A stretch of 57,669 bases of DNA from an uncultured Erysipelotrichaceae bacterium (GCA_902778375.1 CACYXJ010000021.1:1-57669), one strand, 5' to 3'. Shown: positions 8,247 through 57,100, counted from the first letter of the stretch. The notes: a model not told the origin generated them from the letters alone. Translations and numbers: made by a program.

Positions 8247-8249
8247 ATC

Positions 8250-9527: not shown

Positions 9528-9628
9528 AATGAAGGCATTTTATATTCAAAAAACTGATGACGTTTATCCTCATGAGTTTATTATTGAAAACGATCGCTAC
9601 AGTTTTTCAGACGGACGATCGTTTTTCG

Positions 9629-9693
9629 ATGGGAAACTATTTCGGACATAAAAAATATCTACGAAAGAAGAACGTGGCTGCAGTTTTTTAGTG
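9629..9693 (+). pseudogene. 5' scrap of a third serine recombinase
   Basis: The segment ATGGGAAACTATTTCGGA and the following ~45 bases match the start of the recombinase at 1655, including the codons around the catalytic serine, but with substitutions and a small deletion. No body follows. It is the 5' counterpart of the 3' scrap at 3412-3477. The remainder of the 9528-9781 gap shows only the -10 element before the next gene. Confidence 0.65.
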
Positions 9694-9769
9694 GATTAAT
9701 GTTGTCTGCACTAGTGCATTACCGCGAGTCGATATATGTTTTCATAAGACTGAGAGATGTGAATTGTAA

Positions 9770-9775
9770 TATAAT
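9770..9775 (+). promoter_or_regulatory. -10 element directly in front of the response regulator start
   Basis: A perfect TATAAT ends six bases before the ATG at 9782, and no Shine-Dalgarno sequence is present between them. If used, it would give a leaderless transcript. No convincing -35 hexamer is found at 16-18 bases. The recombinase scrap just upstream suggests that the original promoter region was replaced. Confidence 0.35.
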
Positions 9776-9781
9776 TTTTAT

Positions 9782-10468: not shown

Positions 10469-11121
10469 TGATGAAATTGTTTCATAAAGATAATACAGAA
10501 GAGATTCTTGCTTATCAGCAAAGTTTTCTGGATACACACTATAAAGAAGTGGAGAATATGTATTCACAGATGCGCAGATGGCGTCATGACTATCGCAATC
10601 ATATTCAGACAATGAAAGCATTTGCTGAAAATGAAGATCTGGAAGCATTGAAGGCATATCTCAATGAACTTGATAATGATCTTGAGAAGATTGGTTTTTC
10701 ACTGCGAACAGGGAATGCCATGGCAGATGCCATACTCAGCAGTAAGATTTCTCTTGCCGAAGCCAAAGGAATTACTGTCAGAGCAGATGCACATATTCCG
10801 GTGCGGCTGAAAACATCTGATATTGATCTCTGCTGTATTATCGGCAATTTGTTTGACAACGCGATAGAGGCCAGCCAGGCTTTGCCAGAAGAAAAACGAA
10901 TGATCCGGATTTACATGGATATGAAGAATACACAACTGTATATTTCATTTACCAATTTTACTGCCGAGAAGAAAAAAACCGTATATTCCAGTAAAAAGCC
11001 AGGTGATCATGGTCATGGGCTTGTCAGTATTGACAGTATTATCGAAAAACTGGATGGGTATATCAGTCGGAACAGTGAAGACGGAGCTTTTACGACTGAA
11101 ATACTCATACCACAGGTGTGA
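10468..11121 (+). CDS. Soluble GHKL histidine kinase
   Basis: A 217-residue kinase without any membrane segment. The phosphoacceptor histidine is in RRWRHDYRNH near residue 33, the N-box is NLFDNAIEAS and the G-box is DHGHGLVSI. All catalytic motifs are therefore present, but the sensor domain is absent. Such minimal kinases either sense cytoplasmic signals or depend on another membrane partner. The start overlaps the stop of the response regulator gene, and its last bases lie inside a candidate LytTR operator that precedes the ABC exporter genes. Confidence 0.88.
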   Translation: MMKLFHKDNTEEILAYQQSFLDTHYKEVENMYSQMRRWRHDYRNHIQTMKAFAENEDLEALKAYLNELDNDLEKIGFSLRTGNAMADAILSSKISLAEAKGITVRADAHIPVRLKTSDIDLCCIIGNLFDNAIEASQALPEEKRMIRIYMDMKNTQLYISFTNFTAEKKKTVYSSKKPGDHGHGLVSIDSIIEKLDGYISRNSEDGAFTTEILIPQV

Positions 11122-11170: not shown

Positions 11171-11209
11171 TTCTGTTTGTGAAATGATGTGGGCAGAAGG
11201 AGTACAGGA

Positions 11210-13006: not shown

Positions 13007-14847
13007 TGAATAGAAAAGAACTCTACAAACGTGCCTTTCAGGATATCCACAGAGCATGCCCAGGTCTGTTTCTGTCTGTTGCATCTTCAGCATTGCTGGA
13101 AGGAATTGCACCGTATGTAACAGTCTGGTTTTCTTCGCTGATTCTGATTGAACTGAGTGGTATGAGAAGACCGGATGTTCTTGAAAAGAGAATCATAATG
13201 GCTGTGGCAATAATCGGTATTCTCAGTCTGATGAGGATTGTTTTTAAGCAATGGAAAGAATACCATCAGAACGATTACTTTCCTCGCAGGGACAGAATCT
13301 TTATTGAAAAGATGTTCTCTCTTGATTATGAAGACATGGAAAAGCAGAGTATTCATGATCTGCGTCTCCAGATTGCTCAGAGTGAAATGTATCAGGGATT
13401 CGGATATTTAAAGCTGATAGAGATTTTTGAAAAAGCAATTCAGAATACTTTAGGTATCCTGTGTGCACTGTTTTTGAGCGTTCAGCTGTTCTCTGCACTG
13501 GTTCCTTCAGAAAATACAGCATGGCAGTTTCTGAACAACCCTGTCTTTCCGATCATTATGATTATATTGATGGTCTCATTGGCGGTTTTCTCCGGAAAGC
13601 TGACAGCTAAAACAACTGAAGAATATATGTCATTATTGACGGAAGAAGTCTCTGAAGCAAACCGTGCTTTTGGTCATTTTGGTTTTGCCGGACTTGACAC
13701 AAAGAAGAGCGTGGATATCAGACTGTATCACCAGCAGGATTTGATTAAACATTATTGGAAAAACAGCCTGGGAGTATTCGGTCCCAGTGGCATGCCGAAG
13801 TACTACCGTGGTAAAGGAGGAATGCTGCTTGGGCTTTCAGTTGCTTTGAATGGAATTTTTTCAGCATTGCTTTATCTCTTTACCTGTCTTAAGGCAATAG
13901 CCGGTGCTTTTGGAATCGGAGAAATCATGCGGTATGTCGGCGCAGTTACTGCCATGAATACGAATGTGAGCGGTTTGATTGAAGTATATGGGATGATAGC
14001 AGCAAACGAAATACATCTGCAAAGAATCTATGAGCTGCTGGATACACCTAATCATATGTATCAGGGATCTTTGACAACAGAGAAAAGGTCTGATCGGCAG
14101 TATGATATCGAGTTCAAAAATGTGACATTTCGTTATCCCAATACAGATAGAAATGTACTGGATCATGTTAATCTGAGATTCAAAATCGGTACCAGACTGG
14201 CTATTGTTGGGGAAAACGGCAGCGGCAAATCTACTTTGATTAAACTTTTATGCAGACTGTACGATCCACAGGAAGGAGAAATCCTGCTTAACGGCATTAA
14301 TATTCGCAAATATAATTACAAAGATTATATCCAGTTGATGTCGGTGGTATTTCAGGATTACCAGCTTCTTTCCCAACCGTTAGCAAACAATATCGCGGGA
14401 AATTCAGAGTATGATGAAGAACGAGTATTACATGTATTGAAAGAAGTGGGGTTTGAAGAGCGCCTAAAAAGTCTCCAAAGTGGGCTGGAAACATGGCTGT
14501 ATAAAGACTTTGGTGAAGAAGGTGTTATTCTGTCCGGCGGAGAGGCACAGAAGGTCGCAATTGCCCGAGCACTCTATAAGGACGCGCCATTTATCATTCT
14601 GGATGAACCGACAGCATCTTTAGATCCAATTGCTGAAGCCGAGATTTATTCCAGATTAAACGAAATTGTTGCAGACAGGACTGCCGTTTTTATCAGTCAC
14701 AGACTGTCATCGTGCAGATTCTGCGATGAGATTATCGTACTCGACAAAGGTCACCTGGTCCAACAAGGGACGCATGAACAACTGTTTAAGACAGATGGGA
14801 AATATCGTGAACTTTGGAATGCACAAGCTCAGTATTATCGCGCGTAG
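13006..14847 (+). CDS. ABC exporter half-transporter 2 (fused permease-ATPase)
   Basis: Second subunit of 613 residues. The membrane domain comprises roughly the first 330 residues. The ATPase has Walker A NGSGKST, signature LSGGE (Glu instead of the usual Gln), Walker B IILDEPTASLD and H-loop ISH. Both catalytic glutamates of the pair are present, so both ATP sites could be active, unlike many asymmetric heterodimers. The cargo is unknown; peptides or drugs are typical for the family. A short inverted repeat ACCTGA-taat-TCAGGT lies 33 bases after the stop, but the T-run is poor. Confidence 0.9.
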   Translation: MNRKELYKRAFQDIHRACPGLFLSVASSALLEGIAPYVTVWFSSLILIELSGMRRPDVLEKRIIMAVAIIGILSLMRIVFKQWKEYHQNDYFPRRDRIFIEKMFSLDYEDMEKQSIHDLRLQIAQSEMYQGFGYLKLIEIFEKAIQNTLGILCALFLSVQLFSALVPSENTAWQFLNNPVFPIIMIILMVSLAVFSGKLTAKTTEEYMSLLTEEVSEANRAFGHFGFAGLDTKKSVDIRLYHQQDLIKHYWKNSLGVFGPSGMPKYYRGKGGMLLGLSVALNGIFSALLYLFTCLKAIAGAFGIGEIMRYVGAVTAMNTNVSGLIEVYGMIAANEIHLQRIYELLDTPNHMYQGSLTTEKRSDRQYDIEFKNVTFRYPNTDRNVLDHVNLRFKIGTRLAIVGENGSGKSTLIKLLCRLYDPQEGEILLNGINIRKYNYKDYIQLMSVVFQDYQLLSQPLANNIAGNSEYDEERVLHVLKEVGFEERLKSLQSGLETWLYKDFGEEGVILSGGEAQKVAIARALYKDAPFIILDEPTASLDPIAEAEIYSRLNEIVADRTAVFISHRLSSCRFCDEIIVLDKGHLVQQGTHEQLFKTDGKYRELWNAQAQYYRA

Positions 14848-29276: not shown

Positions 29277-30608
29277 TCAAGACATCTTGATCACCTGGTC
29301 GTTTTTTTGATCATTTGGTATATTCAGGAGCACATCTGTCCTGCATTTTTCTAATTCGCTGTTTATGATTTCACCATGATATTTATCAATGATGTTTTTC
29401 ATGACAGTCATTTCAACATAGTTATCCTGTTCAGACACTTTGTGTTCCTCCGTTCCATCCTTTTCATAAGAAACTGAAAGACAAACGATATCCTCCCTCC
29501 TCAGAGCATAAAACCAGATTGTCTTTTCCAGATTCTTCTTTCTGATTTGGGAGATTCCGCTTTCAAGTAGGTTCATTGTAACGATTCCGATATCAACCGG
29601 ATCTAACCCAGTATCATTCCCCAGCATCTCATCTGCGATAATTGAAATATCTTTTTCTTTTTTGGAGATGTAGTTGATTACTGCGTTAACATAAATGTTT
29701 TCCGCGAATGATACCATTTCATCATCATTATCCAGTTCACTTACTGTTTTTTGAATGTACGTATCTGCAGCTGAATAATTTTCCTCATCTAGAAAAGCTT
29801 TCAGGATGCGCAGATGATGTCTGATCATGTGATTAAACCGGATTATCTCAATTTCATTGCTCTTCAGGTCATCAATTTTTGACCGGCTGATTGCCAGATT
29901 CCTTTTCGTCATGGCCTGTTCCTGGCTTTTTCTTTCTAATACGACTGACTGATGAAGGATGTATAGAATTAACAGAAGGGATAATACAGCGTAAATCAGA
30001 ACTCTTGCATAATTCAATGTGTATTCGGGAGCCAAACTACACAGCATTCCATACACTGTATTGATGATATTGACCTGTCCGATCATCAAGAAAAACAGAC
30101 AGCATAGTATAACCGGCTGAGCAATTCTTATACCATCATTTCTGTTTAGAAACCTTCTGACAAATAACAGAAGAATAACCTCAAAACACCAAACGATGAC
30201 ACTTATTATCTGACCGTATTCCTGTATACTCCCTCCTGTATAGAAGATAAGGAATGTGCTCAGCAAATCACCAATGCTTAAAACAATTCCACATAATTCA
30301 GCTGAAACAAGACAATGCCAGAATCCTTTTTCTGTGTTGATCTTCAGAAACAGACTGCCTAGCAACAGTTTCACCCCACTGTTCAGAATCAAGTTCCAGC
30401 TCATATAGAATCCGATTTGTCTAAGGAATGAATTTGAAGTAATCAGGTTCATCAAAGGCTGAAACGCATAATCCGTCATATAATACAAAACTGCCAGCGC
30501 CATAAAAGAATAATAGAATTTCTTTTGTTTCAGCAAATTCGTCCTGAAAAAAGGAAAGACGAACAGTCCTGTACTGATGAGCGTATTGACATAACTGATC
30601 TCGTTCAT
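29277..30608 (-). CDS. AgrC-like membrane protein with degenerate GHKL domain (probable pseudokinase)
   Basis: A 443-residue protein with about six N-terminal hydrophobic segments, as in peptide-pheromone receptors. The phosphoacceptor region reads NHMIRHHLRILKAF. The ATPase domain is abnormal: where the intact kinases of this window have NLIDNAI or NLFDNAI, it reads NLLESGIS, without the Mg-binding asparagine; where they have GYGL or GHGL, it reads QDNYVEMTVMK, without glycines. It therefore probably cannot bind ATP normally and may act as a receptor or scaffold, or through another kinase. The start overlaps the response regulator stop (ATGA). Confidence 0.8.
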   Translation of the reverse strand: MNEISYVNTLISTGLFVFPFFRTNLLKQKKFYYSFMALAVLYYMTDYAFQPLMNLITSNSFLRQIGFYMSWNLILNSGVKLLLGSLFLKINTEKGFWHCLVSAELCGIVLSIGDLLSTFLIFYTGGSIQEYGQIISVIVWCFEVILLLFVRRFLNRNDGIRIAQPVILCCLFFLMIGQVNIINTVYGMLCSLAPEYTLNYARVLIYAVLSLLLILYILHQSVVLERKSQEQAMTKRNLAISRSKIDDLKSNEIEIIRFNHMIRHHLRILKAFLDEENYSAADTYIQKTVSELDNDDEMVSFAENIYVNAVINYISKKEKDISIIADEMLGNDTGLDPVDIGIVTMNLLESGISQIRKKNLEKTIWFYALRREDIVCLSVSYEKDGTEEHKVSEQDNYVEMTVMKNIIDKYHGEIINSELEKCRTDVLLNIPNDQKNDQVIKMS

Positions 30609-31342
30609 CTCAGCCTCCGGACATATTTCTCCTGGACCTCATATCTCATCCTTCTGCTCGCGTAGACAATTACACCATTAATTAGCGTGATTTTCTGCCC
30701 TTCGATTCTTCTGACATGGTCCAGATTGATATATTCAGATGGGTTTATTTTTTGCAGAATGTCCCCAATTGTTTCAACGCATTTTCCTAATGATCCATTT
30801 GTTATACGAAGAACTCTCTCATCTGCTAGATAAACATAAATTTTTCTGTTTTCGACACTGACCTTACTAATCTGATTTCTTCTAATCTGAACAATGCCAT
30901 TATTTGAAAACAATGTGACAAAATCATCCATATAATCTCTTTTGATTTGGTCTAGCTGTTTGATAATTTCCTGCTCTGGATCATTTTTATTGATAAAGCC
31001 GATTACTTTATAACCGAATGCAAAACGTATTTTTGTCGGATAAGCAGTAAAAAACACAATATATGACGTATGATTCTGCAACTTTTTCTGCATTTCGATT
31101 CCATCCTCTTTATCAAGATGAATATCGAGGACAATAAGTTCAAAATGATCGTCTCCCGAGAGAAGTTCATTGCAGTCTGAAAAACATCTGATTTCATACG
31201 CTTCAGAGCAGCACTTCCGTAGCAAACACGAGATTCTGGCGGCATCGTCCGCAGAGTCATCCACAACTGCCATTTTTAGTTTCTGCAGGCTATTGCTGCT
31301 TTCATTCTTACTGTTTTCCATTTGTCTTTCATCATGTTTCAT
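30605..31342 (-). CDS. LytTR response regulator (third pair)
   Basis: A 245-residue regulator. The receiver domain begins around residue 24 (MAVVDDSADDAARIS) and has the phosphoacceptor aspartate in ELIVLDIHLDKEDG, the threonine in FFTAYP and a lysine in GFINKND. The LytTR domain (about 145-245) has ISKVSVENRKIYVYL, YINLDHVRRI and YASRRM. The N-terminal ~23 residues are a polar extension unusual for this family; starts at 31321 or 31273 are alternatives. It probably controls the secreted protein genes downstream. Confidence 0.85.
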   Translation of the reverse strand: MKHDERQMENSKNESSNSLQKLKMAVVDDSADDAARISCLLRKCCSEAYEIRCFSDCNELLSGDDHFELIVLDIHLDKEDGIEMQKKLQNHTSYIVFFTAYPTKIRFAFGYKVIGFINKNDPEQEIIKQLDQIKRDYMDDFVTLFSNNGIVQIRRNQISKVSVENRKIYVYLADERVLRITNGSLGKCVETIGDILQKINPSEYINLDHVRRIEGQKITLINGVIVYASRRMRYEVQEKYVRRLR

Positions 31343-31804
31343 ATAGCATCATCATACCCTTTTTTCCATCACTCATGTTCCATCGGTTTGCTTTTTGATT
31401 ATTTGGTCAGCATAAAAAGAAAAACAGCGCTCAAAGTTTACAGATGGCATATTGTACCCTTTTCTCTACTTGTCCGCTAAATCATTTTACTTTTGACACC
31501 TAAACCATCTATACAAAAATCTGCCAGTCAACAGAAAAGGATCATTGCAAGGAACATCTACTTATCATTTGTTTCTGCAAAACGGAGTCTTTTCCTTGTG
31601 GATTTTTTTGGGCTTATTTTTTTCGATTTATGTATTTCCTAAATGATTATCAGACAGCAAATTATAAATAGTGCTCAGGGGATTATTTGTGGACTTTTTT
31701 CCGTTTTTTATTGTTTTTGAACGATTGATTAAAAAACAATAATCTCCCAAAAACAGGCATTTTATCGCATTTTGTACAGTCTGAAGCTTTAATCAAGATG
31801 TGAG
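31343..31804. other. AT-rich stretch without a recognisable gene
   Basis: Upstream region of the third LytTR pair. I see a TATGAT hexamer near the regulator start and otherwise only T-rich DNA. No coding frame, repeat or RNA gene could be supported. Confidence 0.4.
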
Positions 31805-31841
31805 AATTCACTCCGATAGTCGGCACCATATATGCAGAAAA
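31805..31841 (+). repeat. Direct repeat copy 1, tRNA-Thr 3'-end-like attachment site
   Basis: The core AATTCACTCCGATAGTCGGC followed by ACCATATATGCAGAAAA recurs at 32988-33024 with two differences in 37 bases. CCGATAGTCGGCACCA looks like the 3' T-stem strand, acceptor strand and CCA of a tRNA-Thr gene, a common integration site of genomic islands. The 5' part of a tRNA is not present. Confidence 0.55.
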
Positions 31842-32229: not shown

Positions 32230-32496
32230 TCAGTAGGGTTTGGTTCCGCCGATCTCGTGGTAATAGGTCAGATAGGGTTGGCAGACCCTGAGGTGTTGCA
32301 TCGCAAACTGTTCTTCAAGGCTGAGGTCGCTGTTCTTGTTCACGTGGAACACTCTGTTTTGGCAGGCCACGCAGAAACCTCTTGTCTTAAGATTTTCAAT
32401 TACCAGGTCTCTCCATTCTTCCGGTCCTAAAGTGATCGTTTCACCGCCGGATACTTTGGAAGCCAGTTCTTCAGAAATGCGTTTCTTTTCTTCCAT
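32230..32496 (-). CDS. Small protein with double-glycine leader 1
   Basis: An 88-residue protein whose start, MEEKKRISEELASKVSGG, has the form of a double-glycine leader as used by C39-peptidase ABC exporters (acidic/basic helix, hydrophobic positions, GG at 17-18). The remaining 70 residues include GFCVACQNR, a third cysteine further on, and the ending YHEIGGTKPY. AGAGAGGAA precedes the ATG. It may be an exported bacteriocin, signal or modified peptide precursor; no modifying enzyme or C39 transporter lies nearby. Its start resembles those of the proteins at 33122-33412 and 35160-35453. Confidence 0.7.
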   Translation of the reverse strand: MEEKKRISEELASKVSGGETITLGPEEWRDLVIENLKTRGFCVACQNRVFHVNKNSDLSLEEQFAMQHLRVCQPYLTYYHEIGGTKPY

Positions 32497-32680
32497 GTGT
32501 TATTCCTCTCTTTGAGTCTTTATATAATGATCATACCACAATGATTACAATCGCCTCCGGAGAATAAACTATCAGCTTCAATTAAACGAACTTCGCAATT
32601 AGTCGGTTCCGTTTAGATATTGGCATACACATAGATGCTGCCTATGCTGATTTATCAGCGTTATAGCTTCCATGTAATGC

Positions 32681-32860
32681 TTACACAACTAGAATAACCA
32701 GGACCATTCTAAACATATGAATACTTTCCGGAATTGCCGTTTTTACAAGTCTCTTTAGTATTGGTTGGATCAGCGTCAATTTAGCCCCGCAACATGGACA
32801 TATTGCAGGTTTTCTCTCAACTTTATTCCTGCTTCTTATATCACTAATAATGTGTCGCAT
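32681..32860 (-). CDS. Possible 59-residue zinc-knuckle protein or fragment
   Basis: A frame from ATG 32860 reads MRHIISDIRSRNKVERKPAI, then CPCCGAKLTLI and a hydrophobic end (FRMVLVILVV). The CPCCGAKL knuckle is typical for the N-terminus of small zinc-ribbon proteins, but a second cysteine pair is absent and no ribosome site is visible. It may be the remnant of a longer gene. Nothing else could be supported at 32497-32680 or 32861-32987. Confidence 0.3.
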   Translation of the reverse strand: MRHIISDIRSRNKVERKPAICPCCGAKLTLIQPILKRLVKTAIPESIHMFRMVLVILVV

Positions 32861-32987
32861 GGATGATTTATGGATATTTTTCCAAAATTTTAGGTTTTTT
32901 GATTATATAGTTCAACACTCATAACAATCAAAAAAACATGCATTTTACTGTGTTTTCGTTAGTTTCAATATCTATATAATACGAGCA

Positions 32988-33024
32988 AATTCACTCCGAT
33001 AGTCGGCGCCATATAAGCAGAAAA
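32988..33024 (+). repeat. Direct repeat copy 2, tRNA-Thr 3'-end-like attachment site
   Basis: Second copy of the repeat at 31805-31841. GCCATAT replaces ACCATAT, so the CCA end is changed, and the terminator that follows copy 1 is missing here. The two copies bound 1.15 kb carrying one double-glycine peptide gene. Confidence 0.55.
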
Positions 33025-33121
33025 ACTGGTATTTTTCTTCAAAGCAGTCAGAAATTCAAAATGCTGCTTCCGTTCTTTTAATCTACATTATGCAGAGTGT
33101 TGTAATTTATTTATGAACAGG

Positions 33122-33412
33122 TTAATCACCGTATTTCTCTCTCAGCATTGCCATAATCTCGGGTGTGCCGAGTTCTTGTCCGTCATAAGTAAAGAACACA
33201 TTCTTTTTATCCTCCGGACCATAGTTGCTGAGTTCAGTCCTGCCGATTGGCAGATATACGATCAAAGCAGTCGCAATTGCGTCCTCTCTCGGAAGGTTGT
33301 CAAACTCCGGAAATTTTCTGTGAATATATGCGTACATTTCCGCGAGTTCCTGTTCTGTGCCGCCGTTAATGAACTGCATCAGTTCATTAGGTATCTGTAT
33401 CTTTTCCGCCAT
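33122..33412 (-). CDS. Small protein with double-glycine leader 2
   Basis: A 96-residue protein beginning MAEKIQIPNELMQFINGG, a double-glycine-type leader. The rest is acidic (EQELAEMYAYIHRKFPEF and FFTYDGQELGTPEIMAML) without cysteines. ATG 33412 was chosen because AAAGGAA lies seven bases upstream; ATG 33418 would be too close to it. The family is unknown to me. It lies on the same strand as leader protein 1 but outside the direct-repeat segment. Confidence 0.65.
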   Translation of the reverse strand: MAEKIQIPNELMQFINGGTEQELAEMYAYIHRKFPEFDNLPREDAIATALIVYLPIGRTELSNYGPEDKKNVFFTYDGQELGTPEIMAMLREKYGD

Positions 33413-33679
33413 TTTCATTTCCTTTCACAAATCGTATTCTTTTACAATCAGTATCTGAAGACAGTGCCATCCAATCTGCAATACTTCACTGTTGGATCCT
33501 GCATTTTTACTATACTATCAGAAGTTTTTTCCCCGCAATCATTTTACAATGCATTCCCCCAGATCATCCATACCGGTACCGGTTGGCAGCGTTTTTCATC
33601 TCTTCGAAATACGTCCCTCTTTTTCTTTGCCTCGGATATACCAATGTCTTTCTGTGCAGAACCGCCGAAGAACAGACAA
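33413..33679. other. Intergenic DNA between divergent genes
   Basis: Leader of the minus-strand peptide gene and upstream region of the plus-strand 2H-like gene. No further gene or strong repeat was seen; short open frames here lack ribosome sites. Confidence 0.4.
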
Positions 33680-33688
33680 TGATATAAT
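33680..33688 (+). promoter_or_regulatory. Extended -10 promoter
   Basis: TGATATAAT is a perfect extended -10 element (TGnTATAAT) about 40 bases before the next start. No consensus -35 is needed for this promoter type, and none is seen. Confidence 0.55.
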
Positions 33689-33727
33689 GAGTGCACCAGA
33701 TAGTTAACAGCAGACAGGAATAAAGAA

Positions 33728-34789
33728 ATGATTGTGAAGAACAAAAACAGAATACTGGTATACCTTCTGATAATTCTATCTATATGTGCTTTGATGATCG
33801 GGCTGACTGTTTCAAATCAGACCGGCAGCGCTCCCGCGGCAGCTGATCATACCCAGGCTTCGGAATCCGTCGAAGAACCATATGTTGTCTATGAAGCGGT
33901 TTTTCTGGACACAACGGAAATACTTGAAGTATTTCAGAACATCCGCGGCGAAGAAGCACCATATGAACTTTCTCCGGCAGACTATCATATTACGGTCACC
34001 TTTCTGCCGTCTGTCGCTTCATACGATCTTTACGGTGCGAAAGTCATTGCCAATGGCATATCTTATAAGGCCGGCGATGTTCCGAAGGATGAAGGCGGTT
34101 TAACTCAAAATGAAGGACTCCTTGTAAAACTGCAATCGGACAATCCCGGATTCAGACAGCTGATCAATTCCATTCATACGCACCCATGGCATATCACCGG
34201 GTCGTTTTCCGATAAGCCGAAATATACCGCCCAACTGGATTTTTCCGATGCGGAACCAGTCATGTGCGCGATTTCCGGAACATTCGGCGCATTTATGAGT
34301 GATGGTTCATTCCGATTCACTCCGGAAAAAACAGCTGCATTTGCTGATTCTGAAGCAAACGGAGAAGATGAAAACACTTCCTCGCAAATCTCTCTGTATC
34401 TCTGGGATGACGTCTCTCAAAACAACAGAGTATATACCGATACATTGGAAGAAAGCATTCAGGAGTTCTCCGAACTGCATGATCTTCTATATAGTCAGAC
34501 CGGCAGCAGCAATGACCTGTTGGTATTGGAAGAAGGCTATGATTCCATCCAGGATGGTTTGCTTTATCATGCCGGCAGATCACTCAGTTTTCTGAATCAG
34601 ACAGTCATTTTCAAAAATGAAACATATAAAAATGCCTGGTATCTGGAAATCTTTTCGAAAGAAAACAATGTGAGAAAATGTATCATTCTTCCGGAAGGAA
34701 GCAGATATGCGCAAATGCTGAAACAGCTTCTGGATCGTATGCATTATCAGGAATTGATCAATGAACTCAAAACCGGAAAAACGGATTGA
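33728..34789 (+). CDS. Membrane-anchored 2H-phosphoesterase-like protein
   Basis: A 353-residue protein with one N-terminal membrane segment (LVYLLIILSICALMIGLTV) and an Ala/Ser/Glu linker, so the rest should lie outside the membrane. Residues ~52-195 resemble the 2H phosphoesterase/tRNA-ligase-like fold. The start is YEAVFLD and the first H-x-[ST]-x motif is YHITVTFLP (His87). LYGAKVIANGISY, the second motif WHITGSF (His155) and SDAEPV follow. The C-terminal ~150 residues are acidic and unrecognised. 2H enzymes act on 2',3'-cyclic nucleotides and RNA ends inside cells, so an exported copy is unusual. The fold call rests on motifs only. Confidence 0.55.
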   Translation: MIVKNKNRILVYLLIILSICALMIGLTVSNQTGSAPAAADHTQASESVEEPYVVYEAVFLDTTEILEVFQNIRGEEAPYELSPADYHITVTFLPSVASYDLYGAKVIANGISYKAGDVPKDEGGLTQNEGLLVKLQSDNPGFRQLINSIHTHPWHITGSFSDKPKYTAQLDFSDAEPVMCAISGTFGAFMSDGSFRFTPEKTAAFADSEANGEDENTSSQISLYLWDDVSQNNRVYTDTLEESIQEFSELHDLLYSQTGSSNDLLVLEEGYDSIQDGLLYHAGRSLSFLNQTVIFKNETYKNAWYLEIFSKENNVRKCIILPEGSRYAQMLKQLLDRMHYQELINELKTGKTD

Positions 34790-34854
34790 TTCCACACCGG
34801 GAAAGAACAGAGATCCGTACTGTTTTAAAAGAATCAATTATGGGTATTTACCCG

Positions 34855-34883
34855 TTGACTTCCAAGTATGGCGGTGCTATAAA
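34855..34883 (+). promoter_or_regulatory. Promoter upstream of double-glycine peptide gene 3
   Basis: TTGACT and TATAAA with exactly 17 bases between them form the best sigma-A-type promoter in this part of the window. A transcript from it would have a ~270-base leader before the peptide gene. Confidence 0.65.
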
Positions 34884-35159
34884 ATAATGCTTCCCTGATA
34901 AGAGGAAAGCAAAGCAGCCACGGCCTGCGCACCAGAATGCAGGATCGTCAAAACCGTGACCACCATCGCTTCATACACGCATGTGATTTCCCGTAACTAT
35001 GCTATGATGATAATGGTCTTACAGTTGAACGGATTTTGATTCAATGCGTTCTGTCTGGATGAACATCAAATTAAACACAGGCTGGTACCGCATGGCCAAA
35101 ACCCGCAAGCCCTGTATTTTACATTAGAAAAAGAACTTTAACGAAAAGGAGAACAGAAC
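34884..35159 (+). other. Long leader of double-glycine peptide gene 3
   Basis: Transcribed leader, if the promoter at 34855 is used. It contains a 27-codon open frame (35044-35127, starting MRSVWMNIKLNTGWYRM) with a weak ribosome site, and a second -10-like region near 35000. It shows no clear riboswitch or terminator fold that I can recognise. Confidence 0.35.
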
Positions 35160-35453
35160 ATGGAAAACAAAAAAATGCTTCAGGATGAAACAATGGCGAA
35201 TGTATCCGGCGGATTCATCTTCGCAGACTCAAAAGGACAATTCTGTATTATTGATGAAACCGGCAATGTGCTGGAACTGTTTCAAAGCATGGATGAAGCT
35301 TTGGCCTACTGCGAACAAAACGGCATTTCCAACCAACAGATCAGCTGGGAACAAGTGGTCAAATTAAGAGAAGCAGCGTCCAAAAAGAGACATGAAGACG
35401 ACCCATACTATCCTCCGAATATCAACCCGCTGATTCCCCCTTATCATAAGTAA
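35160..35453 (+). CDS. Small protein with double-glycine leader 3
   Basis: A 97-residue protein. MENKKMLQDETMANVSGG is a textbook double-glycine leader, ending VSGG exactly as in leader protein 1. The remainder (FIFADSKGQFCIIDETGNV, then NVLELFQSMDEALAYCEQNG) has two cysteines and ends in a proline-rich tail (PYYPPNINPLIPPYHK). The strong AAAAGGAGAA site supports the start. Export and cleavage by a C39-type ABC transporter are inferred; no such gene is in this window. Confidence 0.7.
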   Translation: MENKKMLQDETMANVSGGFIFADSKGQFCIIDETGNVLELFQSMDEALAYCEQNGISNQQISWEQVVKLREAASKKRHEDDPYYPPNINPLIPPYHK

Positions 35454-35748: not shown

Positions 35749-36944
35749 TTAGGTTCTATAAGTCTCCATGGATCTTGCGTAGTATATGCGGAAGAACTTA
35801 TTCATGGCTGACACGATTGCCTGCTTGTCTTTCTTTCCTTCTGATTTCTTCTTCACATAGTAATGTCCTGGACAGGTTTGATTCTCTTTAGATTCTTTAC
35901 CATTAGATATCCAAGCTTTCTGAGCTGCTTCGAGCCTTTCCTGGTGATTTTTCTTTCAGAGGCTTTGAACTGTCCGCTTTCATAGGGAGGCACATCAATT
36001 CCGATGCAGGCAATTAATGCGTCTGCGGAGTGATATCTTCTTGGATCTCCTACTTCTGCCACCAGTAAAGGCGCCAATATATCACCGACTCCGCTCATCG
36101 CTCTGACTGCAGCGTATTCCGGTCTCTTCTCCGCAAGTTCCCTGATCTGTGCTAGTATTTGATAGAGCACTTGATTCAGACCTTTCAGTGCCGCTACAGC
36201 TTGTTCTACAAGCAGCCGGCTCGTCGGATCATATGCCAGTGTAGGGATGCCTTCCTTTGCCAGCGAATAAATCTTGCCTGACTTATTCTGACGTGGACGG
36301 TATCCTTTTTTCTTTGCCCATTTATTGAAGCGCTCTTCAAACTTCTTTGGACCCAGTGATGTGATGTAATCATAGTGGCGGAACTCCTCAAGGAAGTCTG
36401 CCAGCCTGTCTCTGCCGGTTACCGGATCATATCCATCGAATTCTTCCTTGATCCCCGGCATCACCTGATCGATCAGATGGTCCAGATTCTGAGTCAGAAC
36501 CACATGCGGTTTCATATAACTGAGATACTGTCTGGATAATGCCTTCATGGCCGCATATTCTTTGTCGGCTCTCTGATACTCCTTCAGTCTGTTCCATTTC
36601 TCGACCGCATACTGTGCAATCGCAATCGCATCAATACGGTCGTTCTTGACTCCTCTGAAATTGATGTCAGCCCTGTATTTCCTCATTGCCAGCGGATTGA
36701 TCTCTGATACAAAGATGCCTTCATCGAGCAGGTAATACAGGATAGGTCTGCTGTAGGCTCCAGTGGCTTCCATGACGACCCGAACATCATTCTTTCCACC
36801 ATAACCTTTGATACTTTTGGATAACTCCTTCAGATCTGTTTCCGTATGTGAGATCTCATACGGTGTCTGCAGCACTTCTCCGTATTCGTTTAGAATACAG
36901 ATCGTGCTTTTCAATTTTGAAACATCGATTCCTACGCCGATCAT
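35749..36944 (-). pseudogene. IS110-family transposase with a C-terminal frameshift
   Basis: DEDD-type serine transposase/recombinase. The N-terminus (MIGVGIDVSKLKSTICI) holds the RuvC-like domain, with the next acidic motifs in VVMEATGAYSRPI and KNDRIDAIAIAQYA. The C-terminal Tnp_2 domain has AVRAMSGVGDILAPLLVAEV and the serine region in IGIDVPPYESGQFKASERKI. The open frame ends at 35853 with KPVQDITM, but one extra base near 35866 would restore HYYVKKKSEGKKDKQ to NKFFRIYYAR and a stop at 35749, the normal family C-terminus. The single-base deletion therefore removes the last ~35 residues. ATG 36944 follows AAAGGAGACC. Confidence 0.8.
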
Positions 36945-36949
36945 AAAAA

Positions 36950-37140
36950 CGGTCTCCTTTCTGCGCAGTAATGCAGTAATCGGCGACCGCTCACACTTAT
37001 TCCTCAAGCATTTTAGTAAGATACCAGAGCGTTTTTTCAGGCTCAACTCGCGTAATCGTATGTACAAAGACAAGGGAGCGGCTGGCAGTTTTTTGTACGG
37101 ACGCTGATTCTCCAAAAAGCCAACGCCAGGCCGAATGACT
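36950..37140 (-). ncRNA. Candidate IS110 bridge RNA region
   Basis: In the IS110 group the non-coding DNA before the transposase start is transcribed into a bridge RNA that pairs with target and donor DNA. The ~190 bases here contain no other gene and several self-complementary pieces. The position fits, but I could not fold it or delimit its ends, so the call rests on context only. Confidence 0.35.
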
Positions 37141-48117: not shown

Positions 48118-51100
48118 TCAGCGGTGAATCAGCCGTTTCCGCAATGCGATGAACATTACCAGCAATGACGCAGTCATAACTGCCAGCCAGTGCAGTGCCG
48201 GCAGAGCACCTCTGTCGGAGGTATCCGGCACCTTGCTGTCAGGTTTTGTATCATCTTTCTTCGGTTCGGTGATCGTGAAGTGTGCTGTGTCGCTGCTGCC
48301 GTCATCGAAGAGAGCAGTCAGGACATGTTCTCCAACCGACAGTGTATTCAGATACTGCGGATGCAGTCTGATGATGACGCTGCCCGCTTCCGCCGTATAG
48401 TTGGATGCTGCCACGTCATTGCCGTCGACCCTGATGCCGATGAAGTGTGAGAATGTTGTCTCATCCTCGGTGTTGCGCTTGAAGCGGAAGACCATATCTC
48501 CGCTGCCGCGTGTCCATGTGCTGCCGTCACCGGCAGTGACACGGTAGTGGATTTCTTCCGGTTTCGGAATGCTTCTTGTTTCCGTTTCGCCGCAGCGCTG
48601 GCAGGTCCTCTGTTCCAGTCCCTCAGCTTCAGCTGACGGTTCCCTGACAACAATCCATTCACTCCAGTCATGCCCGAGTGCCGCAGTTTCTTCACGGCGC
48701 CTCAGAGTAATGAACGAAGGATCACTGAACTCTGCCGTGTATTCCGTTTCGCCCTTCTCTGTGCAGGTCGGCTCCGAAATGACTTTCGAAGCAGTCTGCA
48801 CGGTTTCAGTTACTTTCTCGGACGGATCATTCTGACATGTCTTTGTAGCTGTTACAGTACTGTTGTCATCAGCCCATTCATAGACCGGTGTTCCCCAGTC
48901 ATGACCCTTTGCCGGAATCTCTTCCGTATCGGTCTGGGTTTCAAAGGCTTCGTTCTTGAAGGCGGCTGTATAAGTCTTCTCGCCTGCTTCCGTGCAGGTC
49001 GGTTCCTTTGTTACTTCCGTCTTCACTGCTGCGGTTTCTTTTTCCGTATGTGACGGATCATTCTGACATGTTCTTTCAGCTGTTACCGTTGCCTTGTCAT
49101 CCGACCAAGTATAGGTCGGTTCACCCCAGTCATGGCCGAGCTTTGGAACACTGACAACGGTCCTGCTAACTACTTCGCCGCATTTTGTACAGCGGACAAC
49201 AATGTAGTAGTAGCCGACGTTCGTGCAGGTCGGAGCTGCTCCGTCTTCTCTCGAACTGTCGCCTTCATGACCGGTCGCTTTAATGATCAGGCTCTCATAC
49301 GTGACTTCCTGTGTACCTGCTTCATCCGCATAATATTTGTGGCACTTTTCGCATTCGTAGTGTTCCTTCAGACCGGTTTCGGTACAGGTAGCTGCAACTG
49401 CATCATAGTGCTTCATCAGATGTTCATGGCCCTTTGGCGGGATCGGACGCTCTTCTGTTTTTCCGCAGCGTCCGCATGTCCTTCTCTCCAGACCTTCTTC
49501 ATCTTCTGTTGCTTCCGTGATGACCTGCCATTTACTCCAGTCATGGCCCAGGGCTGCTTCGGTGTAATGGTCTCTTCGCAGTTCCTTGCCGCAGTGCTGG
49601 CAATAGAACACTTCATCGTAGCTGCCTTCTTCTGTACAGGTTGCTTCCTTGATAATTTCCTTTACAGCATTTCCGGGCAGATGGCCTGTTGCCGGAATGA
49701 CTTCCGTACGGGTATGACTGCTGTCATTCTGACATGTATATGCCATGATGCCGTCTTCCTCGCAGGTTGCCGGTTTCGTCACAGTGCCTTCGTCCCAGTA
49801 ATGGCCGGTCGCATCGATATCTTCCACTGTCTTTGTCTGGACTTTGAATCCGGAGCCGGTGAAGACAGCGGTGTAAGTTGTTTCGCCTTTCTCTTCGCAT
49901 TTCGGTTTTCTGGTGACTTCGGCGATGGTTGTCACAGTTTCTTTTTCTTCATGCGAAGGATCATTCTTGCAGATCCTCTTCGCCGTAACTGTCTGGTTGT
50001 CATAACTCCATTCATAAACCGGCTCATCCCAGTCATGACCTGTTTCATCGATCAGGACTGTCTTTGTCTGGGTCTTGAAGGAAGAATCGCTGAATACTGC
50101 TGTGTATTCAATCTCTCCCTTATCGGTACAGGTCGGTTTCTTTGTTTCTTTCGACGTTGTCTTCACTGTCTCGCTGACTGTCTCAGAAGGATCGTTCAGA
50201 CATGTCTTTGTCGCTGTTACCGTACTGTTGTCAGAAGACCACCTGTATTCCGGTGTACCCCAGTCATGGCCTTTCGCCGGAATCTCTTCCGTAACCGTCT
50301 GCGGTTCGAAGTGTTCATCCGTGAATGTTGCCGTGTACGTCATTTCACCGGGTCTGGTGCAGGTTGGTTCTATTGTTACTGAGGAGGTGGCTGCCACCGT
50401 CTCGCTCAGCACATGACTCTCGTCGTTACGGCAGATTGCTTCTGCTGTTACCGTACTCCTGTCATCTGACCATGTATAGGTCGGTTCGCCCCAGTCATGG
50501 CCTTTCTTCGGGATACTGACGATGGTCCGGCTGATCACTTCTTTGCACTTTTCACAGTAGACAACCATGTCGTAATGGCCGACGGTCGTGCAGGTCGCAT
50601 CGACTCTGTTTTCTGTTTTGTGTGCGTACTGATGCGATGCTGTCGGTATGATCAGATCTTCATAGCTGACTTCGTAGATACCTTCTTCATCTGAATAGTA
50701 TCTGTGACACTTGCTGCATTCGTAGTGTTCCTTCAGACCTGTCGTCGTACAGGTTGCCGGTTTTTCGTCAACGTGCGTCATCTCATGCACATGGTCGAGA
50801 TGCGGGATCGCCCGTTCTTCTGCTTCATCGCAGCGTGTGCATTCCCTTCTCTCCAGACCGTCTTTATCTTCTGTTGCTTCTTCGATGACTTTCCACTCGC
50901 CCCAGTTATGGCCGAGGGCTGGTTCGGTGTGGTGATCTCTTGCCAGTTCCTGATGACAGATCTCGCAGTAGATCACTTCGTCATAGCCGCCCGGTGTTGT
51001 GCAGGTTGCTGCTTCGAAATCCTCCATCACCGCTTCTGCCGGACTGTGTCCTGTTGCTTCGATGACTTCTTCTTTTGTATGGCTGCTGTCGTTCCGGCAT

Positions 51101-54100
51101 GTGTATGTCATGACGCCGGCTTCTTCACAGGTAGCTTGTTTCGTTACAGTTCCTTCATCCCAGTTGTGGCCGAGTGCATTGATGTCTTTCAGGCTCTTCG
51201 TCTGGGTTTCGAACGCTTCATTTTCGAATTCAGCTGTATACGTCGTCGTACCCTTTTCCGTGCACGTCGGTTTTACAGAGATTTCCTGTACGGTGACGAC
51301 TGTTTCTTCCACTGCATGACCGCATCTGTCACAGGTCATCCGCGCCGTGACGGTGCTGTTGTCAGCGGACCAGCTGTATACCGGAGCGCTGTAATCATGA
51401 CCCAGCGGTTCGACATCACTCAGCGTCTTCTTCTGCGGCTTGAATGATGTGTCAGTGAATTCTGCTGTATATGTCGTTTCACCCGCTTCCGTACATGTCG
51501 GCAGTGTCGTTACAGACGAGGTTGTCTGTACAGTTTCACTGACCACATGATCCGGATCGTTCTTACAGGTCTTTGTCGCTGTTACGGTGCTGTTGTCGAA
51601 AGACCATTCATAGACCGGTGTATCCCAGTCATGGCCTGTCGCCGGAATGACTTCCGTCTTTGTCTGTGCTTCAAATGCACTGTTTGTGAATGTGACTGTA
51701 TATGTTCTCTCGCCTGCTTCCGTACAGGTCGGTTCCTTCGTCACTTCACTCTTCACAGCCGCTGTTTCGCTTTCCACATGTGACGGATCATTCTTACATG
51801 TTCTTTCGGCTGTGGCTGTACTGTTGTCGGCTGCCCATGTATATGACACCTTGCCCCAGTCATGGCCTTTCTTCGGAATGCCGACCACGGTCCGGCTTAC
51901 TACTTCATGGCATCTTTCACACTCAATGACGATGTAGTAATGACCGAAATTCGTGCAGGTCGCCTCGACTCTGTCTTCTTCGTGCCTTGTCACATCGTGA
52001 CCCAGCGCGTTGATGAGGAGGCTCTCATATGTGACTTCCTGTGTGCCTGCTTCATCCGCATAGTATTTGTGGCACTTTTCGCATTCGTAGTGTTCCTTCA
52101 GACCGGTTTCGGTACAGGTTGCAGCCACTGTGTCATAGTGCTTCATCTGATGTTCATGGTCTTTGTGCGGAATCGGCCGCTCTTCTGTTTCAGAGCAGCG
52201 CCTGCATGTCCTTCTCTCCAGACCTTCTTCATCTTCTGTCGCTTCCTTGATGACTTTCCATTCAGTCCAGTCATGGCCCAGGGCTGCTTCAGTGTAATGG
52301 TCTCTTCGCAGTTCCTTGCCGCAGTGCTGGCAGTAGAACACTTCATCATAGCTGCCTTCCGTTGTGCAGGTCGGCTTGACTTCGTTTTCTCTTACGGATT
52401 TTTCAGACGGCAGATGGCCTGTCTTCGGCAGTACTTCCGTGCGGGTATGGCTGCTGTCATTCTGACATGTATATGTCATGACGCCGTCTTCCTCGCAGGT
52501 TGCCGGTTTCGTCACAGTGCCTTCGTCCCAGTCATGACCGAGTGCGTCGATATTGGCGATTGTCTTTGTCTGCACTGTGAAGGCGGAGCTGCCGAACGCA
52601 GCCGTGTATGTTGTCTCACCCTTCTCCGTACAGGTCGCCGGTTTCGTCACTTGCGCACTTGTCGTTACTGTCTCGCTTTCGATATGCGAGGAATCGTTCT
52701 GACAGATCCGCTTCGCTGTCACACTGCTGTTGTCATAGTTCCATTCATAGACAGGCTCGCCCCAGTCATGTCCGGATGCCGGAATCACTTCCTTCATCGT
52801 CTGGGCACTGAATGCCGGATTGGCAAACACTGCTGTAAAGATCCGTTCACCGTCTTCTTCACATGTTGCAGGGCTTTCCGTCATGACAGTATCAACTGTT
52901 TCTGTTTCGTTGTGGGAAGAATCATTTTTACAGACTCTTTCCGCTGTCACCTTGCTGTTGTCGTCCGCCCATGTATAGGATGGTTCACCCCAGTCATGGC
53001 CGGTCGCCGGAACGGTTTCCGTCTTTGTCTGCGGTTCAAAGGCAGAGTTTCTGAAGATGGCAGTGTAGGTCCGGCTGCCATCTTCTGTGCAGGTCGGCGC
53101 CGTTTCTTCATGCATCACGGTTTCAACGGTTTCCGTCTGCTTATGGGAAGGATCGTTCTTACAGATCCTTTCGGCGGTTACCTTGCTGTTGTCAGCGGAC
53201 CAGGTATATGTCGCCTCACCCCAGTTATGGCCGGTCTTTGGCACATCCTTGACAGTGATTGTCTGAATCTTGAACGCCGGATTGGTGAACGGAGCGCTGA
53301 TATAAGTCGTTTCACCGTCTTCTTCACAGGTTGCCGGTTTGGTAACCTCAGAGGAAGTAATGATTGCCTGTTCCCTTTCCACACATTCCGGTGTTGTCTG
53401 ATGATTGCAGATTCTTTGCGCGACCAGATATGTCTTGTTAGAGGAAAGGTGGTAAACAGTTTCGCGCCAGTCATGACCGATTGCCGGTGTTATTTCGATA
53501 AATATACGGCTGATTTCTTCGTAGCACTCTTTACAGTAGACAACTTTGTCGAAGCCGCCTGCCTCCGTACAGGTCGCAGTTCTTTCATTTTCTTTCTTTG
53601 CCTTATCCGGGTCATGTACGACCGGTGTGGATGCCGTAATATGCACCTTTTCACCCCAGTAACTATAGTTCAGTAGTGTGGCGCCATTGATTTTGATCTG
53701 CAGATCTTCCACCTTATCCGGATAGACAACACCCGGCTCCGGCTCGAGACGGATTTCGATATAAGCTGTCTGCCCGCCGATCAGAGTATAATCCGGACGG
53801 GAATGATCCGTCTCTGATTCGATAAAGTATATACCGTCGTCAATACTGTAGGAACTCTGGTCGATGTAACCGCGCGGCTGCATCTGTCCCGCTTCCGTAC
53901 CGCACCATACAGTGAACAGATCGATATCGATCTTTGTCTGGATCTTGATCATTGCATAGTAGATATCTCTGTCATTGCTGAGAACTTCTTCCATGTCGAT
54001 CTGAGCAGCGATTGCTTCATCCATAGTTTTGTAGTCACTCAGCGGCTGCGGCAGGAACAGTCCGAAGACCGTCTTGCCTGTGGCAGGTTTATATCCATCT

Positions 54101-57100
54101 TTCTTGAAACGATAGGTGATTTTGTCTTCATTCGGTCCGATGACATTCAGCAGCTTGGTACCTTCATCTGCCTTAAGAACCAGCGGTTCGACCAGATCGA
54201 TTCCGTCTCTGGAAGACCAGTGAATCGTCAGATTCTTGATCGGATCATTCTTCCACAGGGCTGTAAACACAGTATCCTTGTCAATTCTGACAACCTGACC
54301 GGCAAAATAGCCTTCAGGCCCTATGCCCCAGCAGTCAAATGTTTTTCCCTGCGGTGCTGTAAATGTATTCTGCGGCAGGATGTAATAGCTTTCCTTGCAT
54401 ACTCTGACTGTATAAGTCTCGCCGCTGCCGGTGCCTGGATCGAAAGTTACGATCGCTGCCGGGCCGAAGACACCTTCCCCTTCCTGGCTGTAGCCGGTCG
54501 CAAGTTCGTTGTCACTGACAAAATTCTCAATGACACCTTTGCCGGGCAGACCGCTCGTAAAGATGCCGTTCTTCATGCCGTAAACACCGATCCTGGCATC
54601 TTTGTCCAGCATACCCGCTACAGTGATGATACCGTTGCGCAGTTCGACATTGCATGTCTTGCCGCCGGCAATGTTATCGGTAATGACCGGATTGCCGGAA
54701 ACCTTGAATGTACCGCGGCTGACGCTGATATTGCCATGGCTGTCTGCCGTGTTGTTTGTGATCGTGCCGCCGCGGATATCCACAGTCGTATTCAGATCGA
54801 CCATCGAAACGCCGCAGATATGTGCTTTGTTATTCTCAATGGCACCGCCTTCCATGATGAAGGTGCCGTTGGCTACCGGATGCACGCCACCGCTGAAATA
54901 GGAATAGTTGCCGGTGATCGTGCCGCCCTTGAGAATGAATGTACCGCCGTTTACCGTAACGGAACCGGCTGTGTATGGATTGGCACTGTCGTTATTGGCA
55001 CCGGTCAGAGTTCCGCCGCCGGCAGAATCGGTAACGGTCAGGGTGCCCTGAATGTTCATGATGGCACCGCCGTCAGTGAGCTTGTTCTGCAGATTGCGGT
55101 CGATTGAATGACCGTTCAGATCAATGGTGATATTTTTGCCGGCCGGAATCACCAGCGCAGAGTCAGTCGGCATTGCCCTGACATCATCGCTCAGAACGAT
55201 TACATCACCGTCTTTGGCGTTGTTGATCTTTTCCTGCAGATCCTGCCACGGGCTGCCCCACAAGGCAGTCAGGGTAGTGTCTTTTTCCGGTGTGATCTTG
55301 TCGCCTGGAGCAACAAGCTGCTTCGGATCGTCATCGACCATCCAGCCGGCAAACTTTGTGTCTTCCAGAGTGAATGTGCATTCCGGAACGGTATATTCCA
55401 TACCTGCAGCTGTAACGACAGGCTTCATTGTACCTGCGGCTAAAGGATCGCCTTTTTCGAAGTCGATGGTTACGCCGACAGCCAGCTGTGCTTCATAGTC
55501 TTCTGTCTCGATGATTACATAGGCAGGATCGTCACTGTACAGATGCGCGCTTGAGAAATTGCCGCTCATTCTCTTCATGACGGTAACCGGCTGACCGTAC
55601 TGCGGTGCGATTTCCGAAGTGATGCCGACATATGCCCTGACACCGAGGGTGTTGACCATACGGTCATACTTCGGTTCGCCGTCCTCGGCATTGATATACA
55701 GGTTGTTGGCTTTGTTGGCAACTGTATTGCCGTTGATATGGGCATCCCCGGTAACGATGAAATCGCCGTCGCCATATACACCGCCGCCGCTGACTGCAGC
55801 CGAGTTGCCGTAGACGGTACCGCCGAACATCAGGTAACTGTGCAGGGTGCCATGGATAGTCGAATCGATATAAACACCGCCGCCGCTCTTACCGGCAGTA
55901 TTGTTTTCGATATAAGTGCTTGTGTACTGGTCGAAACGGCCGACGTCGTAGATACCGCCACCGTTGCCGTCAGCATGGTTGTAGCTGATAAAGCCGCCCC
56001 TCATGGTCAGTCTGCCGTAGTTGACGATACCGCCGCCATCACCGGTCGTGTTGCCGCCGGTGATGATGCCTTTCAATGAGGCACCGTTGTTTACGATGGT
56101 CAGATTGCCGTTGTTCACTAAGACTGAACCATTGTCCACCGGTACTTCCAGATTGCGGTTGATCATACAGCCGTTCAGGTCGATGGTAATATGCTGATCC
56201 TTACCGATGACAAGCGGTACATCATACGGCGAAGCAATAACATCCTCATCGAGAACGATGGTTACTGATGTCTCTCCTGCCAAATCGATTTTTTCCTGCA
56301 GTTCCTTCCACGGACTGGTCCAGAGGGCTGTGATTTCCATATCGCCTGTGAGCTGGATCTGCTTCTTCGGCTGATAAACTTCCGTGCCGATCTGCCAGCC
56401 CTTGAAGCGATAGCCTTTCAGCGGTTCCCATGGGCATTCCGGCAGTGTCAGCCAGCTGTTCTGGGCATAGTCCGTACTTTCGGTAACATGCTGCTCAGCC
56501 TTGTCGCCGCTGTTGACGGTAACAGTGACTTTCGTCTTGCCAAAGACAAGTTCACCATTCGTGTCATAACCTTTGTAATAATTATTGTCCGAATAGATCA
56601 CATCGAAATTGCCATTCTTCGGCAGGCCGCCGGTGACGGTCACCGGTTCATCGACTTTTTCCACCCACGGATGTGTCAGATAGATCACAGCATCATCGCT
56701 GAGCGGACCGTCAATATTCATGACACCGCTGGCTGATACGTATACATTTGCATCAATGCCGTCTTTGCCCTTGTTGTCTTTGATAATTGGACTGCCTGAG
56801 AAATACGTGCCGGAGGATGATACGACGATACCGCCGCCGAGGTTGTCACAGATATTATTAATGATCTTTCCGCCCTGGATCTTCGTGTTGCCGTTGATTG
56901 CGTCAATACCGCCGCCGATCCGGCTGGCATGGTTGTTCTCAACTGTGCCGCCGGTCATGGTCAGGGTTCCGCGGTTGTTGATGATACCGGCACCGCGTGA
57001 TGCTGTATTACCGCTGATCGTACCGCTTTCGAATATCACTTCACCATACTCGATGTGGATACCGCCACCTACTTCCGAAACTACTGTCGAACTGTTGTTG

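What the first reader, a model, noticed from the sequence alone, without database searches (positions are those of the whole stretch)
32230..35453. Cluster of three double-glycine leader proteins without a C39 exporter
Three small proteins begin with similar leaders: ELASKVSGG, ELMQFINGG and ETMANVSGG. Their mature parts differ completely from each other. They surround a membrane-anchored 2H-like protein and lie a few kb from a pheromone-receptor-like pair. Double-glycine leaders are normally cut by C39-type ABC exporters, which are absent here; the ABC exporters at 11-15 kb have no peptidase domain. This may be a dispersed set of exported signals, toxins or RiPP precursors served by a transporter elsewhere.
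Basis: partly seen in the sequence, partly recalled or inferred. Interest (0 to 1): 0.7.

Follow-up and report, generated by a model that had tools for sequence, protein, structure and literature searches.

The report
Dispersed small proteins exported by leader
A ruminant-gut bacterium carries about 45 small genes scattered around its genome that share the same 'export me and cut here' tag on otherwise unrelated small proteins, and a matching cutting exporter lies on another contig; the three genes in this window are part of that set and look like exported small folded proteins rather than classic toxins or signals.

Summary
Window ORFs 32230-32496(-), 33122-33418(-) and 35160-35453(+) each carry an 18-residue double-glycine leader before an unrelated acidic 70-79-residue mature part. 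'Without a C39 exporter' is true of the window only. The same genome has two C39-type ABC transporters: an NHLM-type pair on contig C4 with an intact Cys/His/Asp triad, and a pair on C25 whose Cys and His are replaced. About 45 small ORFs in this 2.4-Mb genome carry the leader; all 45 scored leaders are hydrophobic at -12, -7 and -4, the positions PCAT peptidases contact. Among 36 genomes of the genus, leader ORFs track the exporter (>=3 hits: 10/12 with, 0/24 without). The cores fall into three groups: LanM-linked, radical-SAM-linked, and apparently unmodified small domains (Zn-ribbon-like, ferredoxin-like and a new ~80-residue family with ~10 copies). The window's three belong to the last group: P2 and P3 have confident folded models, P1 keeps C-x2-C...H-x3-C, and no maturase or obvious immunity gene is nearby. 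Best reading: substrates of a promiscuous NHLM exporter secreting small folded proteins to the envelope or outside. Export is inferred, not shown; molecular function is open. New variant of a known kind.

The parts
32230..32496 (-). P1: GG-leader protein, 88 aa; leader = residues 1-18 (32443-32496), mature part 70 aa with a C-x2-C...H-x3-C pattern
   Evidence: ORF with RBS; homologues in G010, G032 and a paralogue on C7 keep the leader and the Cys/Cys/His/Cys residues
33122..33418 (-). P2: GG-leader protein; likely start 33412, leader 18 aa, mature part 78 aa; member of a ~80-residue domain family with about 10 clear copies in this genome
   Evidence: AF2 model of the mature part pLDDT 93, pTM 0.80; dN/dS 0.30 against G001
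35160..35453 (+). P3: GG-leader protein, 97 aa; leader 35160-35213, mature part 79 aa, predicted beta-strands plus helices with a Pro-rich tail
   Evidence: AF2 pLDDT 84 on 6 sequences
33728..34789 (+). Membrane-anchored extracytoplasmic protein, divergent neighbour of P2; the P2 / membrane-protein pair is kept in G001 (74.5% identical there)
   Evidence: no Pfam or NCBIfam match
31749..31841 (+). Left copy of a 93-nt direct repeat (74% overall; its 19-nt core identical) flanking the P1 gene
   Evidence: core found only at these two places in the genome
32932..33024 (+). Right copy of the same direct repeat
30605..31342 (-). LytTR-type response regulator near P1; no shown link to it
   Evidence: PF00072 1.9e-8, PF04397 3.5e-5
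29277..30608 (-). Putative sensor kinase partner of the response regulator (four TM segments by hydropathy, no family match)

Best explanation
The three genes encode substrates of a peptidase-containing ABC exporter of the NHLM type encoded on another contig (C4). The 18-residue leader docks on the C39 peptidase domain through hydrophobic residues at -12, -7 and -4. The peptidase cuts after GG, and the ~8-9 kDa remainder is pushed out unfolded and folds outside or in the envelope. The leader acts as a generic export tag: the same exporter most likely also serves LanM-made lanthipeptides and radical-SAM-modified peptides of this genome, but the window's three are probably unmodified small folded proteins. 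Shown here: leader conservation, its spread to about 45 ORFs, an exporter with an intact triad, genus-level co-occurrence, predicted folds. Inferred: cleavage, export, location. Proposed but not shown: an envelope or extracellular binding role rather than killing or pheromone signalling.
For: Exporter: C4 proteins pass the curated cut-offs of TIGR03796 (924.1 > 853.3) and TIGR03797 (718.5 > 709.4); C39 triad Cys/His/Asp intact on C4, Cys->Asn and His->Tyr on C25. Leaders: 45 of 45 hydrophobic at -12, -7 (Ala counted) and -4, the contact positions reported for PCAT1 and LahT (PMC6959990, PMC6363468). LahT150 needs only the last 13 leader residues and also cuts precursors with leaders much shorter than the Nif11 type. 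Co-occurrence: >=3 leader hits in 10/12 genomes with the exporter, 0/24 without. One leader on many unrelated cores. P2 and P3 cores predicted folded; P1 keeps Cys/Cys/His/Cys. No maturase beside the three; P2-family genes sit mostly alone among housekeeping genes. 40 of 45 cores are negatively charged. In Clostridia, ORFs near the related exporter put the same leader on cell-wall-binding domains: CW_7 E=1e-30, LysM E=1e-18. Precedent: MAM, a GG-leader envelope protein of Faecalibacterium proposed to be exported by a PCAT (PMC12184118).
Against: No experiment. The genome is 92% complete in 112 contigs, so gene distances and absences are approximate. The leader profile was partly built from genomes that also score as positive; without them the association is only p = 0.009-0.025 on 3 positive genomes, and the genomes are related, so the counts are not independent. 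At looser thresholds five exporter-less genomes have 1-2 hits, though G027 is only 70% complete. Which transporter (C4, C25 or both) carries which substrate is not known. An envelope role rests on analogy with MAM and with LysM/CW_7 cargo in other bacteria.
Confidence: 0.78

Rival explanations
1. RiPP precursors: the cores are modified in trans by the LanM or the radical-SAM/SPASM enzymes encoded elsewhere in the genome, then exported.
For: The genome has a LanM beside three GG genes (C1) and radical-SAM/SPASM proteins directly beside Nif11-like GG genes (C7, C11). LanM enzymes that modify dispersed precursors are known (prochlorosins; abstract of PMC10783134).
Against: P2 has no Cys, so no lanthionine or sactionine bond is possible; P1's Cys and His are conserved like metal ligands; P2 and P3 are predicted as folded domains. 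None of the three matches the Nif11 leader model, and no maturase is nearby.
Confidence: 0.12
2. Unmodified class II bacteriocins or toxins, secreted to kill neighbours.
For: The leader resembles bacteriocin leaders (P3 vs Bacteriocin_IIc 13.2 bits, below the cut-off of 27.1). A PedC-like disulfide isomerase and a lantibiotic-protection-type ATPase lie elsewhere in the window. The large, divergent P2 family could reflect conflict.
Against: Cores are acidic and hydrophilic, 70-79 residues and predicted folded; no clear immunity gene beside the P2-family loci; dN/dS 0.30 in the one pair tested.
Confidence: 0.12
3. Peptide pheromones read by the nearby kinase / LytTR regulator pair.
For: P1 lies ~0.9 kb upstream of the regulator on the same strand; GG-leader pheromones with LytTR systems are common (general knowledge).
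Against: Mature part of 70 residues with metal-ligand-like residues, far longer than known GG pheromones; the P1 paralogue on C7 sits among other GG genes; P1 is absent from G001's P2 locus, which is otherwise kept.
Confidence: 0.05
4. Cytosolic proteins whose N-termini resemble GG leaders by chance.
For: Short motifs recur by chance; zinc-ribbon and ferredoxin-like cores are usually cytosolic.
Against: About 45 occurrences against a median of 0 in exporter-less congeners; same leader on unrelated cores; 45/45 match at -12, -7 and -4.
Confidence: 0.03

Closest known systems
NHLM / NHLP export system with Nif11- or nitrile-hydratase-type leaders (Haft 2010, PMC2887384)
   Same: Exporter pair above the TIGR03796 and TIGR03797 cut-offs; GG leaders; substrates may lie far from the exporter; paralogous expansion; exporter and leader co-occur across species.
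   Different: The window's leaders are 18 residues, not Nif11 or nitrile-hydratase domains; cores are acidic and predicted to fold, not Cys/Gly/Ser-rich; no modifying enzyme beside them.
PCAT1-CtA of Clostridium thermocellum (PMC6959990)
   Same: Single-chain C39 ABC exporter with a 90-residue GG-leader substrate; same hydrophobic leader positions.
   Different: One cognate substrate there, about 45 dispersed candidates here.
LahT / lah cluster of Lachnospiraceae C6A11 (PMC6363468)
   Same: Nine precursors with varied cores and conserved GG leaders; a peptidase domain very tolerant of its substrates.
   Different: Precursors clustered with the exporter and carrying long Nif11 leaders; here scattered and mostly short.
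MAM of Faecalibacterium (PMC12184118)
   Same: Small GG-leader protein of a gut Firmicute, proposed PCAT substrate, abundant in the envelope, not a known bacteriocin.
   Different: MAM gene adjacent to its PCAT in most species; unrelated core.
Prochlorosins of marine picocyanobacteria
   Same: Many GG-leader precursors with hypervariable cores in one genome, few processing enzymes (partly from memory; abstract of PMC10783134).
   Different: Nif11 leaders and LanM-modified peptides; here most cores look unmodified and folded.

Membership tests
PCAT (C39) substrate | GG at -2/-1 with hydrophobic residues at -12, -7 and -4 | tested here: met
   All three (Ile/Ile/Leu at -12; Ala/Met/Met at -7; Val/Ile/Val at -4); 45/45 in the genome set
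PCAT (C39) substrate | A C39 exporter with intact catalytic residues in the same genome | tested here: met
   C4 protein; the C25 protein lacks Cys and His
PCAT (C39) substrate | Cleavage after GG and export shown | not testable with these tools
   needs biochemistry or peptidomics
NHLM export system | ABC1 (TIGR03796) and ABC2 (TIGR03797) above curated cut-offs | tested here: met
   C4 pair 924.1 and 718.5 bits; C25 pair below (601.7 and 469)
NHLM export system | HlyD-like fusion subunit (TIGR03794) | tested here: inconclusive
   A 169-aa membrane protein lies directly upstream of the C4 exporter but has no NCBIfam match at 1e-10
Nif11 / NHLP precursor | Leader matching TIGR03798 or PF07862 | tested here: not met
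   No match for P1-P3 at E<=1; other GG genes of the genome match weakly
Class II bacteriocin | Leader model above curated cut-off (PF10439, TIGR01847) | tested here: not met
   Only P3 matches PF10439, 13.2 bits against 27.1
Class II bacteriocin | Cationic or amphipathic core with an immunity gene | tested here: not met
   Core charges -1.9, -7.5, -5.1; no clear immunity candidate beside the P2-family genes
Lanthipeptide | Cys plus Ser/Thr in the core and a LanM/LanBC for it | tested here: not met
   P2 has no Cys; the only LANC_like protein found is on C1 beside other GG genes. Not excluded for P1 and P3
GG pheromone | Short mature peptide with a cognate kinase | tested here: not met
   Mature parts of 70-79 residues; link to the nearby regulator not shown

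The most novel reading that the evidence does not exclude
NHLM-type C39 exporters of gut Firmicutes are general secretion systems for small folded protein domains (P2-type, zinc-ribbon-like, ferredoxin-like, LysM, CW_7), marked by a portable ~18-residue tag that has been attached many times to unrelated domains across the genome; making bacteriocins is only one use.
Probability: 0.5. Interest if true: 0.78.

Novelty: new variant of a known kind. Interest (0 to 1): 0.62.

Why it matters
C39 exporters are usually read as bacteriocin or pheromone machines, and their substrates are sought next to them. Here most candidate substrates are far from the exporter, look unmodified and carry folded, often metal-binding-like or (in Clostridia) cell-wall-binding cores. 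If true, this gives gut Firmicutes a sizeable secretome that signal-peptide predictors miss, gives MAM-like envelope proteins a wider family of mechanisms, and makes substrate choice by PCATs testable with a ready panel of about 45 natural leaders.

Tried and rejected
Pfam, NCBIfam and PHROGs scans of P1-P3: no usable match. P2 fold against PDB and viral models: no match of note; a calmodulin-like sequence hit (E 0.016) is not significant and the predicted order of elements (H-H-strand-strand-H) does not look like an EF-hand pair. P3 fold against PDB: nothing. P1 profile against PDB sequences: one weak hit to a zinc-finger protein, E 0.016. The direct repeat around P1 as a genome-wide cassette signal: only two copies in the genome. 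P2 as partner of the membrane protein: the pair is kept in G001, but no homologue of the membrane protein turned up beside the other P2 copies held. Literature for GG leaders on LysM/CW_7 domains: none found in the held library, which is not proof of absence.

Full report
Observation. The three ORFs exist as described and each begins with an 18-residue double-glycine leader behind a ribosome-binding site. For P2 the second ATG (33412) is better spaced from GAAAGGA than the first. The mature parts are 70, 78 and 79 residues, acidic and hydrophilic (charges -1.9, -7.5, -5.1), and unrelated to each other.

Is the leader more than chance? Homologues of P1 (G010, G032, a paralogue on C7), P2 (G001 at 76%, G007 and many paralogues) and P3 (G001, G007, G010, G021, G032) keep a leader ending in GG, or in one case AG. 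A profile of 31 leaders finds 34 sites at E<=0.1 and 49 at E<=10 in the window's own genome; reading the ORFs gives about 45 leader sites, the weakest of them uncertain. In all 45 the positions -12, -7 (with Ala) and -4 are hydrophobic, and about 90% are acidic at -9. Hydrophobic -12 and -7 and a specificity-giving residue at -4 are what the PCAT1-CtA structure and LahT work report (PMC6959990; PMC6363468). P2 against its G001 orthologue gives dN/dS 0.30, so it is a constrained protein.

The missing exporter. The window has no C39 domain: the two exporters at 11-15 kb have ABC domains only. The genome has two C39-type ABC proteins. The C4 pair passes the curated cut-offs of both NHLM models (924.1 and 718.5 bits) and has the Cys, His and Asp of the peptidase; the C25 pair falls below the cut-offs and has Asn and Tyr in place of Cys and His. 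So one exporter appears able to cut. The nearest C4 relatives are in ruminant-gut Erysipelotrichaceae MAGs (90-71%), then in Oscillospiraceae, Lachnospiraceae and Ruminococcus, which also suggests what the unnamed host is.

Co-occurrence. In 36 genomes of the genus, full-length C39 exporters occur in 12. Three or more leader hits occur in 10 of these 12 and in none of the other 24 (Fisher p about 3e-7). Caveats: several of the 12 supplied rows for the profile; without those, only 3 positive genomes remain and p is 0.009-0.025; the genomes are related; several are incomplete.

What is exported. Cores fall into many unrelated groups. On C1 three leader genes follow a LanM. On C7 and C11 Nif11-like leader genes with 'CxATVExGSxC' cores sit directly beside radical-SAM/SPASM proteins. 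The rest look unmodified: 17 of 44 cores have two or more CxxC pairs with weak zinc-ribbon matches, although some of those belong to the radical-SAM-linked group; one is ferredoxin-like (Fer4_21, 4e-8, C70), and about 10 belong to the P2 family. Of all cores 40 of 45 are negative, unlike classic bacteriocins.

The window's three. P2's mature part is predicted with high confidence (pLDDT 93, pTM 0.80, 29 sequences; H-H-strand-strand-H) and has no relative of note in the PDB or viral models. P3's mature part is predicted fairly well (pLDDT 84, 6 sequences). P1 keeps C-x2-C...H-x3-C in all four sequences compared, which fits zinc binding (inference). P2-family genes sit mostly alone among housekeeping genes, with no maturase and no clear immunity candidate. 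The P2 / membrane-protein pair is kept in G001, but P1 and its flanking 93-nt direct repeat are not found there, so P1 looks like a lineage-specific gain.

Beyond the genus. In the loci around related exporters of Clostridia, ORFs with the same leader carry LysM (1e-18) and CW_7 (1e-30) cell-wall-binding domains, Nif11 leaders with zinc-ribbon-like cores, and other cores. A cultured isolate, Lachnospiraceae FE2018, has 9 hits. This, and MAM of Faecalibacterium, is why an envelope or extracellular role is preferred.

Mechanism and limits. Leader docking on the C4 peptidase, cut after GG, export of the unfolded chain, folding outside: these steps are inferred from PCAT1, LahT and the models; nothing here shows export. 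Whether C4 alone serves all leaders, and what each core does, is open.

Known or new. Dispersed GG precursors, promiscuous C39 peptidases and the NHLM exporter are known (PMC2887384, PMC6363468). A set of about 45 mostly short-leader, often folded and apparently unmodified cores in one small genome, and LysM/CW_7 cargo on the same tag, were not found described in the papers searched. Hence 'new variant of a known kind'.

Noticed in passing
31749-31841 and 32932-33024: Direct repeat of 93 nt (74% identical, 19-nt core identical) on both sides of the P1 gene; the core occurs nowhere else in the genome. It could mark an insertion.
   Followed up: partly
L058:7976-8317, L102:7570-7953, L103:9377-9871, L110:6675-7193: Proteins with two successive GG leaders, as if the export tag had been added twice or the first part were itself cargo.
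   Followed up: no
L106:4111-4389: GG leader on a two-[4Fe-4S]-type ferredoxin core (Fer4_21 4e-8): an odd cargo for an exporter thought to move unfolded chains.
   Followed up: partly
L004:6464-8644 (contig C25): Second C39-type ABC protein with Cys->Asn and His->Tyr in the peptidase domain, beside its own second ABC subunit; one GG gene lies ~7 kb away.
   Followed up: partly
2355-2933: PedC/BrcD-like disulfide isomerase (4e-13, below cut-off); its first ~24 residues are repeated at the start of the ORF at 5739-6173.
   Followed up: no
6160-6795; 7548-11121; 11189-14847: ABC ATPase resembling lantibiotic-protection transporters, and two regulator/kinase-like gene pairs next to two ABC exporters.
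   Followed up: no
35853-37115: Transposase-like protein (reads like an IS110-type enzyme, from sequence alone) next to P3.
   Followed up: no
48118-57591: Very large (3157 aa) repetitive surface-type protein.
   Followed up: no
L129, L139, L144, L183, L143, L185: GG leaders on LysM or CW_7 domains near NHLM exporters of Clostridia.
   Followed up: partly
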